From Allosalinactinospora lopnorensis (GTDB taxonomy: Bacteria; Actinomycetota; Actinomycetes; Streptosporangiales; Streptosporangiaceae): a DNA stretch of 64,000 nt. Positions 58,545 to 64,000 of the stretch are shown one piece after another. How positions within the stretch are numbered: the stretch's first letter is position 1; the number at the start of each line of letters is the position of its first letter. The DNA lies in assembly GCF_000981225.1 (NCBI RefSeq), contig NZ_LAJC01000015.1, forward strand, positions 31,791 through 95,790, in the 5' to 3' direction. The notes beneath the pieces are model-generated. The model was not told the origin of the DNA. It ran no database searches and saw only the letters and a program-made list of their open reading frames with translations. The translations under genes were made by a program, and so were the position numbers.

Positions 58545-60695
58545 TCAACCCGCGCCATCCGAGGAGTGGGTGAGCTGCAAACGAACCGGCTCGGCCAGTG
58601 CGGCGCGCGCCCCCTCGACGTCGGCGAGCCGGGCCGCGAGCGTCGCCACCGCCAGTTTCTCCGGCAGCACAGCGGCGAACTTCAGCCCGTGCACGGCTCT
58701 GCGGTCCACATCCGGCAGTACCAGGATCTCGCCGTTGTCCGTGCCCGCGCGAGCCTCGCGCCAGGCGTCCGGGGTCAGGTCCGCACGCAACCGCAGGGAC
58801 AGATCCGTTGGCCGCTGGACCGGATCGGCGATCGAGGGCAGGGTGGCGATGAGGGTGGCGTTGGCGCGGTAGCCGGCCCAGGTCCACCACCGCACTTCCT
58901 CTCCGATTCTGCTCACCAGCGAACCGCCGGGGTGCACGACACCGGGGGCCTCGTCCCGGCGCCACTCGGCCAGGGCGCTCTGGGCCCGGCGGGTGAGCAA
59001 CACCGGAGGGTCGACGCCGAGCAGCACCTCGCGCATGGCGCGGGTCAGCTCATACGACAGCCCGGCGATGCCGCCGCTGGTCCACTTGGCCACGCCCCCG
59101 CCCTCGGCGGGTTCGACGAAGGCCCTCCGCCGATTCCAGTCGATCGCGGTCACCCGCCAACTGCGTCCCCCGAGGAGCAGCAGCCGCGGCCCCGGCCTCT
59201 CTTCGGTCAGCACCGAGGTGTCGGTGCGGCCGATCTCCTCGCGCCCTGTCAACACGGTGAACTGCGGCGGCGCGGTGAAAGAGGCGGTCAGTTCGATGAA
59301 GTGGCGCCGCCCGAACCGCCGTTCGGCCTCCGGGCCGGCGAACAGCATCCCGTCGTCCTGGTCGAAAAACCCCTGGTCGACCATGTGGCGCAGGATGGGT
59401 GCCGCCGAGCGGTCGAAGGGCGCCAGCCCGTTCCACCCCTCCGGCCACAGGTGGTCGCCGATCGTGTGCTTCTGCAGGGTGAGGGCGAGCAGTTGCTGGG
59501 CCACCAGGTGGCGCGGCTCGGGCGGCGCGGTCACCGGTTCCACCCAGCCGCGCCCCCACAGCAGGAGCAGCCCCGCGGCCTGGAGCAGCGCCTCGCGCCG
59601 GGTCGCGAGGAACAGGCAGTTGCGCACGGCCCCGGACCGCCGACCGGTGCGTCCGATGCGCTGGAGGAACGAGGCTACGGTCGCGGGTGCGTCGATCTGG
59701 ATCACCCGGTCGAGGTCCCCCACGTCGATGCCGAGTTCGAGCGTGGACGTGGCGACGATGACGCAGTCCCGGGCTTCGGCGAAGGCCCGCTCGGAGCGGG
59801 TGCGCTCTTCGGCGGACAGCGACGCGTGGGACAGGTACGCGGTCACGTCGCGGGCGCGCAGGGCTGCGCCCAGCTCTTCCACCTGCCGCCGGGAGTCGCA
59901 GAACACCAGCCGCTTCTCGCCCCGGTGCAGTGTCGCGATCACCCTCGCGGCATTGTCGACCGAGCCGACGTAGTCGAGTTCCACCTCGCCGGCGGGGCGG
60001 GAGTCGCTCGGCGCCGCGGGCGCGGGATCGGGCGCGACCACCTGACCCGCCCGCTTCTCGGCGTTGGCCCCCTGCAACCAGGTGAGCAACTGGCGCGGGT
60101 TTCCCACGGTCGCTGACAGGCCGATCCGCTGGATGGGACGCCCGGTCACGCGCTCCAATCGCTCCAGGACGGCCAGCAGGTGCCATCCCCGATCGTCACC
60201 GGCGAAGGCGTGCACCTCGTCCACGACCACCGCGCGCACCTGCCCCAGCAGGTGCGCGTGGTCGGTTTTCACCCCGATCAGCATCGCTTCGAGCGACTCG
60301 GGGGTGGTAAGCAGGATGTCGGGCGGGTCGGTGCGGATCCGCTGCCGCCGCGCCTGGCGGGTGTCCCCGTGCCAGAGTTCGGCCCGGCGGCCGAGCCATT
60401 GGGCGTAGGAGTCGATCCGGGTGGCCAGGTTGTTGAGCAGCGCCTTGAGCGGGCACAGGTAGAGCACCGACAGGCCGGTCCAGCGCTGGTGCGCCATCGC
60501 CGAGAGCAGCGGGAAGCAGGCCGCCTCGGTCTTGCCGCCCGCGGTCGGGGCGAGCAGCACCGCGTCTTTTCCATCTATCAGCGGGGCGATCGCCGCCCGT
60601 TGCAGTGGCCGCAGGTCGGGCCAGTTGAGGGTGTTGACGATGTGGTGCGCCACGACCGGATCGAGCCGATCCACGGGGTCGCCGCCGGCCATCAC
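58545..60695 (-). CDS. brxHI: BREX type 2 helicase BrxHI (Lhr-like)
   Basis: A 716-residue SF2 helicase with Walker A LLAPTAGGKTEAAC (about residue 47), LLTTPESLEAML, DEVH box VVVDEVHAFAGDDRG, IGLSATVGNPRQL, VFCDSRRQVEELG, STLELGIDVGDLDRVIQIDA and the QRIGRTGRRSG motif. It has an Lhr-like C-terminal region. It is the last gene of the pglZ-brxD-brxHI order on the minus strand, overlapping brxD by 4 bp. Together these are diagnostic of BREX-2/Pgl antiphage systems. Family assignment is from gene order and motifs, without a profile search. Confidence 0.85.
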   Translation of the reverse strand: MMAGGDPVDRLDPVVAHHIVNTLNWPDLRPLQRAAIAPLIDGKDAVLLAPTAGGKTEAACFPLLSAMAHQRWTGLSVLYLCPLKALLNNLATRIDSYAQWLGRRAELWHGDTRQARRQRIRTDPPDILLTTPESLEAMLIGVKTDHAHLLGQVRAVVVDEVHAFAGDDRGWHLLAVLERLERVTGRPIQRIGLSATVGNPRQLLTWLQGANAEKRAGQVVAPDPAPAAPSDSRPAGEVELDYVGSVDNAARVIATLHRGEKRLVFCDSRRQVEELGAALRARDVTAYLSHASLSAEERTRSERAFAEARDCVIVATSTLELGIDVGDLDRVIQIDAPATVASFLQRIGRTGRRSGAVRNCLFLATRREALLQAAGLLLLWGRGWVEPVTAPPEPRHLVAQQLLALTLQKHTIGDHLWPEGWNGLAPFDRSAAPILRHMVDQGFFDQDDGMLFAGPEAERRFGRRHFIELTASFTAPPQFTVLTGREEIGRTDTSVLTEERPGPRLLLLGGRSWRVTAIDWNRRRAFVEPAEGGGVAKWTSGGIAGLSYELTRAMREVLLGVDPPVLLTRRAQSALAEWRRDEAPGVVHPGGSLVSRIGEEVRWWTWAGYRANATLIATLPSIADPVQRPTDLSLRLRADLTPDAWREARAGTDNGEILVLPDVDRRAVHGLKFAAVLPEKLAVATLAARLADVEGARAALAEPVRLQLTHSSDGAG

Positions 60696-62119: not shown

Positions 62120-64000
62120 GGAGTGGAGGTCGAACTGGTCGCGCAGCAGGGGGGTGTTCAGGCGGAGGGTGCGCCCGTCCGGAAGCGTTTCCAGGACCTG
62201 GACGCCGTCGTAGTTGAGCAGTTGGCGCAGCACGGCGGCGAACCCGTCGGCGCGGGACGTGGGGTAGCCGACGCGCTGGGCCAGGGCGGTAGCCGGGAGG
62301 GTGCCGGCCTCCAGCAGCACCCGGACCGCGTTCTCCACCTTGTCCATGGACGGTTTGCGGGCCAGCAGCCCCACCTGTGCCTGGAAGGTCTCCGTGGCGA
62401 GGAGCCGGTCGACCAGCGCCTCGTCAGGCGCGCCCGGTGCGGGTGCGGCCCGCGTCTCCTCCCGCGCCGGCTCCGGCGGCAGGTCGAACAGCGCGTCGTG
62501 TGTCTCCTCCAGCTCCGCCCGCCGTTTGGCGCCCGGTGTCCGGCGGGGTGGCGTCGGTTCGGGGGCCACCGCCGGGGAACCCGCCGCGGTCGCGGGCGGG
62601 GCCGCATCCAGGCGCCACCAGGCGGGGCGCTGATCGCCCAGTTCGCGCCACCCCTTGGGGGGCTCCGCGCCGAAGGGAAGGAACGCCAGGACGGGGATGG
62701 CGACCTCGGCGAGGGAGGCGCCGCCGTGATAGCCGGCCTTCTGGGAGGTGTAGCGGGTGTCGGCGTCCCACAGGGCGACGATCCCGCCGCCGGCCACCAC
62801 CCGCGGGCCGGACAGGGCGACCTCGTTCGCGCCTGGCGGGTCGGTGGGCGCGCGGTGCCGGGCGGAGGCCACGTCCGCGCCGTCGACCTTGGCCCCGTGG
62901 CGGTCCACAACGTGCCCGTGGTCGCTGGTGAGGAGCACCGCCATGCCCTGGGTGGCGGCCACCCGCAGCAGTTCGCGTAGCTTGCCGATCTCGTCGAGCC
63001 GCCACGCGCCGTCGCCGAGTTTCCGCTCGTTGGCGAGCCGGTCGTCGATGGTGTTCAGCACGACGGCGACGTGTGTGCGCTCATCGGCGAGCGCGTCGGC
63101 CAGTCCGGGGCCGAACGCGTCGCCGGGGGTCTGGCCGCGCAGGTCGTCCTTGTGGAACACGGCCGCCCGGGCCGGACTCCAGAACCGGTGCCCGCCGAAC
63201 AGCCGCTTCTCGTCGGCCTGGGTGCCCTGGGTGAGTTCGCCCGCGAACAGCGAGGTGCGCGACACCGCGGTCACGGTGGGCAGGACGGCGGCCATGCCGC
63301 GCCGCCGCGGCGGGGAGTCGGCGTCCTCGGGCACCGGGTCGTACTCGGCCCACTGCCGGCGCAGCTCCTCGGCCAGCTCGGCGGCGATGGCGGCGCTCAT
63401 CCCGTCCAAGAGCAGCAGCAGGACCCGGCGCCCGGAGGCCGCCACGGGTTTGGCGACCCTGGCCAGGAAGGTTTCCACGGTCAGCATCGAGCCGGGGCCG
63501 GTCCCGGCCGCCGTCCAGGTGGCGAGCGTTTCGGCGAAGGCCCGGTCGATACCGCGCCGCCGTTCGCGGACCCGCGCGCCCAGCGCGTCGTAGGCGGTTC
63601 TCAGCTGCGGGTCGGGGTCGCCGCCGGCCTCGATGTGGTCCAGGGCCCGGTCCACCCAGCCGGTGTCGCCGATGTGGCGCTGCACCGCCGCGGCCACCGT
63701 CTCGGCTTCGGTGGCCGGGTCGGTGGCCAGCCACTGGGCGAGCCGCTGTCCCATCCGGGCCCGCTCGATGCGCACCCGCGTGTCAGGGTCGGCGGCCAGC
63801 AGGTGCGCGCCCAGATCCGCCACGGCCCGCGCGATCGCGCCGGGTTCTCCGCCTGCCAGGGCCCGCCCGGCCGCGGTGAACCGCGCGTCGAGGCCTTCGC
63901 GCAGGACCGGGCTGGCGGCGGCCGCGGTCTCGGCGCCGAACTGGCGTACCAGGTGGCTCGCCCGCTCCAGTACCGGGTCGGTGGTCCGCCGCGCCTCGCG
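62108..64000 (-). CDS. pglZ: BREX-2 phosphatase-like PglZ, N-terminus beyond the window
   Basis: At least 630 residues, continuing off the right edge. Alkaline-phosphatase-superfamily PglZ domain: LLLLLDGMSAAIAAELAEEL (metal Asp), VLPTVTAVSRTSLFAGEL, LLTSDHGHVVDRHG (Asp/His) and YHGGASLAEVAIPVLAFLPF. A Pro/Ala-rich linker and a C-terminal winged-helix-like tail follow. The frame stays open from 63823 to 64000 with coding composition, so the start lies further right. Upstream pglW, pglX and pglY are expected outside the window. The stop is embedded in a repeat element. Confidence 0.88.
   Translation of the reverse strand, partial: REARRTTDPVLERASHLVRQFGAETAAAASPVLREGLDARFTAAGRALAGGEPGAIARAVADLGAHLLAADPDTRVRIERARMGQRLAQWLATDPATEAETVAAAVQRHIGDTGWVDRALDHIEAGGDPDPQLRTAYDALGARVRERRRGIDRAFAETLATWTAAGTGPGSMLTVETFLARVAKPVAASGRRVLLLLLDGMSAAIAAELAEELRRQWAEYDPVPEDADSPPRRRGMAAVLPTVTAVSRTSLFAGELTQGTQADEKRLFGGHRFWSPARAAVFHKDDLRGQTPGDAFGPGLADALADERTHVAVVLNTIDDRLANERKLGDGAWRLDEIGKLRELLRVAATQGMAVLLTSDHGHVVDRHGAKVDGADVASARHRAPTDPPGANEVALSGPRVVAGGGIVALWDADTRYTSQKAGYHGGASLAEVAIPVLAFLPFGAEPPKGWRELGDQRPAWWRLDAAPPATAAGSPAVAPEPTPPRRTPGAKRRAELEETHDALFDLPPEPAREETRAAPAPGAPDEALVDRLLATETFQAQVGLLARKPSMDKVENAVRVLLEAGTLPATALAQRVGYPTSRADGFAAVLRQLLNYDGVQVLETLPDGRTLRLNTPLLRDQFDLHSRRS

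What the first reader, a model, noticed from the sequence alone, without database searches (positions are those of the whole stretch)
58545..64000. BREX type 2 (Pgl) phage-defence operon enters from the right edge
The minus-strand order PglZ, BrxD (P-loop ATPase), BrxHI (Lhr-like helicase) is the conserved 3' half of BREX-2, first known as the Pgl system of Streptomyces coelicolor. Established: this family gives phage resistance in actinobacteria. Inferred: pglW, pglX (methylase) and pglY lie beyond 64000. The three genes in the window look intact, unlike many others here.
Basis: partly seen in the sequence, partly recalled or inferred. Interest (0 to 1): 0.8.

Follow-up and report, generated by a model that had tools for sequence, protein, structure and literature searches.

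The report
BREX-2 phage defence with embedded regulator
The window ends inside a BREX type 2 (Pgl) gene cluster, a bacterial system predicted to block viruses, whose other genes lie on a second piece of the same genome; wedged among them is a regulator-like gene pair that recurs at the same spot in many relatives and likely controls the defence genes.

Summary
Confirmed, with corrections. brxHI, brxD and pglZ are at the stated coordinates and match BREX-2 profiles strongly. pglZ is not intact there: position 64000 is the contig end and cuts off its first third. The missing genes are on contig C82 of the same genome, in the expected order (pglW, pglX, pglY, start of pglZ); the two contig ends share an exact 17-base overlap. 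pglX, brxD and brxHI read open. pglW, pglY and early pglZ carry frame changes that look mostly like assembly error.

The system itself is known and common in actinomycetes. Less expected: pglX and pglY are 8.5 kb apart, and the insert holds an XRE-DUF5753 regulator with its DUF397 partner, plus an AfsR-like NB-ARC/TPR protein. Of 80 BREX-2 loci with measurable spacing (own included), 32 have an insert there and 25 of the 32 hold such a pair; strict flanks hold 2 in 280 kb. The regulators are not one clade. By published locus tags, the founding Streptomyces coelicolor Pgl locus has a pair there too (SCO6629/SCO6630). I propose, untested, that the pair controls BREX-2, as the unrelated BrxR does elsewhere.

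The parts
58545..60695 (-). brxHI, Lhr-like SF2 helicase, 716 aa, open frame; its start overlaps the brxD stop by 4 bases
   Evidence: PADLOC BrxHI 1072 bits over residues 7-706; DEAD and Helicase_C domains; Walker A, DEVH and motif VI present
60692..62095 (-). brxD, P-loop ATPase, 467 aa as listed from a TTG (true start not settled)
   Evidence: BREX_BrxD 647 bits, cut-off 350; Walker A and B present; 83% identical to two relatives
62108..64000 (-). pglZ, C-terminal two thirds only (profile 282-889 of 890), cut by the contig end
   Evidence: BREX_PglZ_2 691 bits, cut-off 200; first part on C82:49-840
63984..64000 (.). 17-base end of contig C15 identical to the first 17 bases of contig C82, which carries pglW, pglX, the insert, pglY and the start of pglZ
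   Evidence: exact suffix-prefix overlap, and PglZ of four relatives matches both contigs; the overlap reads as the same residues in one frame on both contigs

Best explanation
The last 5.5 kb of the window are the end (brxHI, brxD and the C-terminal two thirds of pglZ) of a BREX type 2 (Pgl) operon whose pglW, pglX, pglY and pglZ start lie on contig C82 of the same genome; the operon is predicted to block phages, and an XRE-DUF397 gene pair inserted between pglX and pglY likely controls its expression. From established knowledge of the family: PglX would methylate adenines at a short host motif and mark self DNA, PglY and BrxD would be AAA+ ATPases assembling on DNA, BrxHI a helicase, PglW a NERD/kinase sensor, and PglZ an effector that also restrains PglX. 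Shown here: the genes, their order, their motifs, and the regulator pair in the pglX-pglY gap. Inferred: defence, methylation, and that the pair acts on pglWX or pglYZ-brxD-brxHI. The inference rests on how often such pairs occur in this one gap, on their separate origins, and on the published toxicity of PglX without PglZ, which makes control of these genes useful.
For: Profiles for all six BREX-2 genes. Contig ends overlap by 17 bases and PglZ runs across. Own insert holds HTH_31/DUF5753 and DUF397 directly behind it. Survey: 25 of 32 pglX-pglY inserts hold DUF5753 and the same 25 hold DUF397; 2 DUF5753 in 280.5 kb of strict flanks; genome background 58 matches (fragments included) in 5.9 Mb here and 393 in about 105 Mb of 14 BREX-2-bearing genomes. 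The slot regulators need 10 label changes on the tree, at least 7 forced by well-supported branches. SCO6629/SCO6630 is an XRE-DUF397 pair (PMC10364602, passages) within the pgl island.
Against: No expression, binding or phage data. The set fetched after the pattern was seen shows it less strongly (6 of 11 inserts) than the first set (18 of 20). 48 of 80 measurable loci have no insert at all, so the pair is not needed for BREX-2 as such. Eight regulators stand upstream of pglX in loci where pglW was not found (77 kb); counted as flank they raise it to 10 in 358 kb. In this genome the regulator and the NB-ARC gene run towards each other, unlike the divergent arrangement in the Streptomyces clade, so one common promoter layout is not conserved. 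No shared operator was found before pglY. pglW, pglY and pglZ are frame-broken as assembled; real decay is not excluded.
Confidence: 0.55

Rival explanations
1. An ordinary BREX-2 operon in which the pglX-pglY gap is only a tolerant landing site. The XRE-DUF397 pair is one more piece of mobile or toxin-antitoxin-like cargo and does not regulate the operon.
For: XRE-DUF397 pairs have been proposed to be toxin-antitoxin systems (PMC10364602, passages; PMC7159879, passages). Cargo beside the pair is mixed: Schlafen-type proteins, a DUF234 ATPase, ParA-, QueC-, NUDIX- and PP2C-like proteins, a transposase. 7 of 32 inserts lack the pair.
Against: Random cargo would not put a DUF5753/DUF397 pair in 25 of 32 inserts at about 180 per Mb against about 4 per Mb in genomes and 7 per Mb in strict flanks. 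Defence islands may be richer in such pairs than flanks, which I could not exclude fully.
Confidence: 0.4
2. A decaying, non-functional BREX-2 operon: pglW, pglY and pglZ have real frameshifts.
For: Three frame changes in pglW, one in pglY, two in pglZ; C82 has the highest candidate rate, 2.3 per 10 kb coding.
Against: The whole assembly is rich in candidate frame changes: window 0.98, other own loci 0.56 per 10 kb, against 0.15, 0.08 and 0.05 in three sets from other genomes (a crude composition scan). Third-position GC stays that of coding DNA throughout. An intact pglX beside a truly dead pglZ would be expected to harm the cell (PMC4365076, passages).
Confidence: 0.15
3. Not BREX-2 but BREX-6 or Shango, which have BrxD- and BrxHI-like proteins as well.
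For: SngB and SngC profiles match at 128 and 386 bits; that these belong to Shango, and that BREX-6 shares the pglZ-brxD-brxHI end, is recalled.
Against: BrxD and BrxHI profiles match at 673 and 1072 bits; PglX is BREX-2 at 1773 bits against 42 for BREX-6; PglW, described as specific to type 2 (PMC12839542, section 22), is present.
Confidence: 0.01

Closest known systems
Pgl (BREX type 2) of Streptomyces coelicolor A3(2)
   Same: pglW, pglX and pglY, pglZ in this order with genes in between; an XRE-DUF5753/DUF397 pair by locus tag in the gap (SCO6629/SCO6630)
   Different: pglX here has no G run of 7 or more, the S. coelicolor phase-variable tract has 8 G; cargo includes an NB-ARC/TPR protein; the S. 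coelicolor locus itself was not compared by sequence
Compact BREX-2 operons of Acrocarpospora, Nonomuraea, Microtetraspora (L003-L009)
   Same: closest PglZ relatives, 70-73% identical; same gene order
   Different: pglX and pglY lie within about 100 bases of each other; no insert, no regulator pair there
BREX-2 of genome G018 (L088), same family as the window's genome
   Same: insert in the same gap with the same NB-ARC protein (76% identical), and an XRE-DUF397 pair
   Different: insert 5.4 kb, without the Hint-like protein; its regulator is only 27% identical and lies elsewhere on the tree
BrxR-regulated BREX (WYL-domain regulators)
   Same: a DNA-binding regulator encoded with a BREX system (PMC9122589 and PMC9122601, passages)
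   Different: another protein family; BrxR is described upstream of or early in its BREX island, the pair here sits between pglX and pglY; regulation here is untested

Membership tests
BREX type 2 (Pgl) | PglZ of the BREX-2 kind | tested here: met
   NF033446 691 bits in the window plus 245 bits on C82, cut-off 200
BREX type 2 (Pgl) | PglX adenine methyltransferase of the BREX-2 kind | tested here: met
   NF033451 1773 bits, cut-off 400, NPPY at residues 375-378
BREX type 2 (Pgl) | PglY ATPase | tested here: met
   NF047891 1114 and 1125 bits in two frame pieces covering positions 1-561 and 559-1296; each piece alone is below the cut-off of 1700
BREX type 2 (Pgl) | PglW with NERD and kinase domains | tested here: met
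   NF033442 over its cut-off of 990 with pieces summed; NERD and kinase domains in the pieces; four frame pieces
BREX type 2 (Pgl) | BrxD and BrxHI next to each other behind pglZ | tested here: met
BREX type 2 (Pgl) | Blocks phage and methylates a DNA motif | not testable with these tools
   needs phage plating and methylation sequencing
S. coelicolor-type phase-variable Pgl | Long G tract in pglX | tested here: not met
   longest G run in pglX is 6
BREX type 6 | PglX of the BREX-6 kind | tested here: not met
   42 bits, cut-off 900
Shango | SngB/SngC as best match of the ATPase and helicase | tested here: not met
   128 against 673 bits and 386 against 1072 bits; family name recalled
XRE-DUF397 regulator pair | HTH-XRE + DUF5753 protein followed by a DUF397 protein | tested here: met
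   C82:11961-12809 and C82:11765-11959, minus strand
BREX transcriptional regulator (BrxR-like role) | Binds and controls BREX promoters | not testable with these tools
   needs binding and expression assays

The most novel reading that the evidence does not exclude
Actinomycete BREX-2 has its own built-in switch: XRE-DUF5753/DUF397 pairs have been recruited again and again into the pglX-pglY junction, splitting the operon into a pglWX half and a pglYZ-brxD-brxHI half that can be set separately; SCO6629/SCO6630 is that switch in the founding Pgl system, and swappable NTPase or nuclease cargo beside it adds a second defence layer.
Probability: 0.4. Interest if true: 0.65.

Novelty: new member of a known kind. 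Interest (0 to 1): 0.4.

Why it matters
Control of BREX-2 has been explained by the PglX-PglZ toxin/antitoxin pairing and by G-tract slippage in pglX (PMC4365076, passages). A regulator pair found in 25 of 32 inserts at one junction, and by locus tags in the model S. coelicolor locus, makes transcriptional control of a long-studied system directly testable, and suggests a role for SCO6629/SCO6630, which gave no appreciable change when overexpressed (PMC10364602, passages). If the pair turns out not to regulate, the junction is still a marker for cargo carried with BREX-2.

Tried and rejected
BREX-6 and Shango as labels: rejected by scores. Homopolymer shortening as cause of the frame changes: run-length spectra resemble those of the relatives, so no error type is claimed. 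A phase-variable G tract in pglX: none of 7 or more. C82:7870-8289 as a PIN-type protein, from the look of its sequence: no PDB match at E up to 1, and only a 12-bit Pfam match to another family; left unnamed. Single-sequence PDB searches with PglZ (E up to 0.01) and PglX (E up to 0.001): no match. A shared operator: the region upstream of eight Streptomyces-clade regulators has conserved blocks; by eye I saw no like block before pglY or behind pglX, and ran no motif statistics. Empty-site test by the DUF817 neighbour: DUF817 is in 11 of 60 searched genomes, own included; the loci were not examined further. First regulator tree: L013 was mislabelled as background; replaced. First insert count, 19 of 21, own included, came from the loci in which I noticed the pattern. 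The Python phase scan missed the pglY and second pglZ frame changes, so its rates are minimum figures.

Dropped before counting: of the 28 places over the cut-off (own left out) I fetched 27, not the partial G102; of 38 fresh places I fetched 36, not G334 (contig start) nor G256 (partial, overlooked). 19 of 99 loci had no measurable pglX-pglY distance because pglX or pglY was not found in the stretch. 13 further stretches downstream of pglZ (L110-L122) were fetched and not used.
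Full report
Observation. The three minus-strand genes are where the finding puts them and match BREX profiles strongly: BrxHI 1072 bits, BrxD 673, PglZ 657 in PADLOC; BREX_BrxD 647 (cut-off 350) and BREX_PglZ_2 691 (cut-off 200) in NCBIfam. The nucleotide-binding and helicase motifs of BrxD and BrxHI are present. The window is bases 31791-95790 of contig C15, which is 95790 bases long, so 64000 is the contig end and PglZ lacks its first third here (profile 282-889 of 890).

The rest of the operon. The same genome holds BREX-2 PglX at C82:13433-16987 (1773 bits) and PglW at C82:17096-21697, and the missing PglZ part at C82:49-840, profile 31-278. PglY covers C82:997 to about 4865. 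All are on the minus strand in the order pglW, pglX, insert, pglY, pglZ. The last 17 bases of the window equal the first 17 of C82, both ends read as the same residues there, and the PglZ of four relatives (L003, L004, L006, L008) matches both contigs end to end. I take C15 and C82 as neighbours. A LytTR response regulator converges on brxHI from the left, and a DUF817 gene lies beyond pglW.

Frames. pglX, brxD and brxHI are open. pglW shows three frame changes, pglY one and pglZ two, near C82:824-864 and just before C82:49. A phase-composition scan gave candidate frame changes per 10 kb coding of 0.98 (window), 2.3 (C82) and 0.56 (30 other loci of this genome), against 0.15 (30 loci), 0.08 (27) and 0.05 (35) from other genomes. 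The scan is crude, but this assembly is several-fold to tenfold or more richer in them, so error is the simpler reading; C82 is the worst stretch and real decay is not excluded. PglX was reported toxic without PglZ (PMC4365076, abstract and passages), which speaks against a true loss of pglZ beside an intact pglX.

The insert. Between pglX and pglY lie 8.5 kb, GC 0.66 against 0.69 for the contig. They hold: a 129-aa protein without a Pfam family, with a relative in L088; an XRE regulator (HTH_31, DUF5753) at C82:11961-12809 with a DUF397 protein directly behind it at C82:11765-11959; an NB-ARC/TPR protein resembling the ATPase-TPR part of AfsR (356 bits, far below the AfsR cut-off of 1430) behind a DUF6879 protein; small unnamed frames; and a protein in two frames whose later piece has a Hint match below Pfam's cut-off. 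Genome G018 of the same family carries the same NB-ARC protein (76%) in the same gap.

Survey. 99 BREX-2 loci: 35 named, 27, 36, and the own one. Profiles were built from the first two sets. pglX-pglY distance could be measured in 80 of 99: 48 under 1 kb, 32 with an insert (138.4 kb in all). 25 of the 32 inserts hold a DUF5753 regulator, and the same number a DUF397 protein. By set: 18 of 20 in the first, 6 of 11 in the later one, and the own one. After merging loci with pglZ DNA at least 93% identical: 22 of 29. Controls: strict flanks (before pglW, behind brxHI) hold 2 in 280.5 kb; stretches upstream of pglX in loci where pglW was not found hold 8 in 77.4 kb and were not counted as flank; pglW-pglX inserts of at least 1 kb hold one in 3 of 8. 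Background: 58 matches, fragments included, in this 5.9-Mb genome and 393 in 14 BREX-2-bearing genomes of about 105 Mb. The gap density is about 180 per Mb, against about 4 (genomes), 7 (strict flanks) or 28 (flanks with the 8 added). Other cargo found in inserts, from 20 frames scanned out of the 99 frames called in 21 inserts: Schlafen group 3 helicase, Schlafen AlbA_2, DUF234 ATPase, ParA, QueC-like, NUDIX, PP2C and a transposase.

Tree. On 101 DUF5753 proteins (25 from the gap, 13 upstream of pglX, 63 others, mostly a sample of the highest-scoring) the gap label needs 10 changes, at least 7 forced by well-supported branches (quick search, one support measure). Eight regulators, seven of them from named Streptomycetaceae, form one clade. 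The own gap regulator is nearest to a paralogue in its own genome (40% identity). Changes cannot tell gain from loss, but descent from a single regulator fits poorly.

Literature. BREX-2 is reported from 1309 taxa, 1039 of them actinomycetes (PMC12839542, sections 14 and 22 and part 1 of section 35 read); its main text has no occurrence of DUF5753 or NB-ARC (supplements not seen). Searches: DUF5753 with BREX, 0 papers; at least four of BREX, regulator, Streptomyces, pglY, XRE, 8 papers, seen as a listing apart from passages or sections of PMC12839542 and PMC9739823; DUF397 with phage or defence, only 15 of 7,106 listed; DUF5753 or DUF397, 26 papers, 15 listed, passages of three seen. So I found no report of this link, within these searches. 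SCO6629/SCO6630 is listed as an XRE-DUF397 pair, overexpressed without appreciable change, in a paper with no occurrence of 'pgl' or 'phage' (PMC10364602, passages). pglX is SCO6627, and the pglWX and pglYZ loci lie in SCO6625-6642 (PMC1934918, passages), which puts the pair between them; that pglY is SCO6635 is recalled. I did not see the S. coelicolor sequence.

Reading. The operon is an ordinary, probably functional BREX-2 locus. The recurrent embedded pair is the part worth testing. I favour a regulatory role, a counterpart of BrxR unrelated to it in family, over mere cargo at about even odds or slightly better. Regulation, binding, methylation and defence are all untested here.

Noticed in passing
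   Followed up: partly
L050:5294-7353 (contig C82): A protein in two frames with a pilin-like start and a weak Hint match, followed by a small frame that could be its partner; looks like a polymorphic-toxin-type module inside the BREX-2 insert. Searched in pieces only.
   Followed up: no
L012, L013, L015-L017, L019-L022, L027-L030, L032 between pglZ and brxD: Several Streptomyces BREX-2 loci carry a second insert of about 3-4 kb between pglZ and brxD; in five of the seven loci I checked for frames the longest is about 605-646 aa on the opposite strand. Not identified.
   Followed up: no
L098, L101, L104, L106, L213, L214, L215, L023 upstream of pglX: XRE-DUF5753 regulators also stand upstream of pglX in loci where pglW was not found; these could be another seat of the same regulator type.
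   Followed up: partly
regions upstream of the slot regulators in L011, L015, L021, L025, L026, L031, L036, L193: Conserved short blocks in the region upstream of the regulator, possible promoter or operator sites.
   Followed up: no
L039 (own genome, contig C3 near 108862): A further adenine-methyltransferase-like protein in a 1375-residue open frame, weak match to the PglX model (56 bits).
   Followed up: no
L045 and L046 (own genome, contig C13 near 23972 and 25587): Two kinase-like matches to parts of the PglW model (101 and 80 bits), close together; could belong to another kinase-bearing system.
   Followed up: no
window 29664-30626 (+): Another XRE-DUF5753 regulator, one of 58 DUF5753 matches (fragments included) in this genome.
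   Followed up: no
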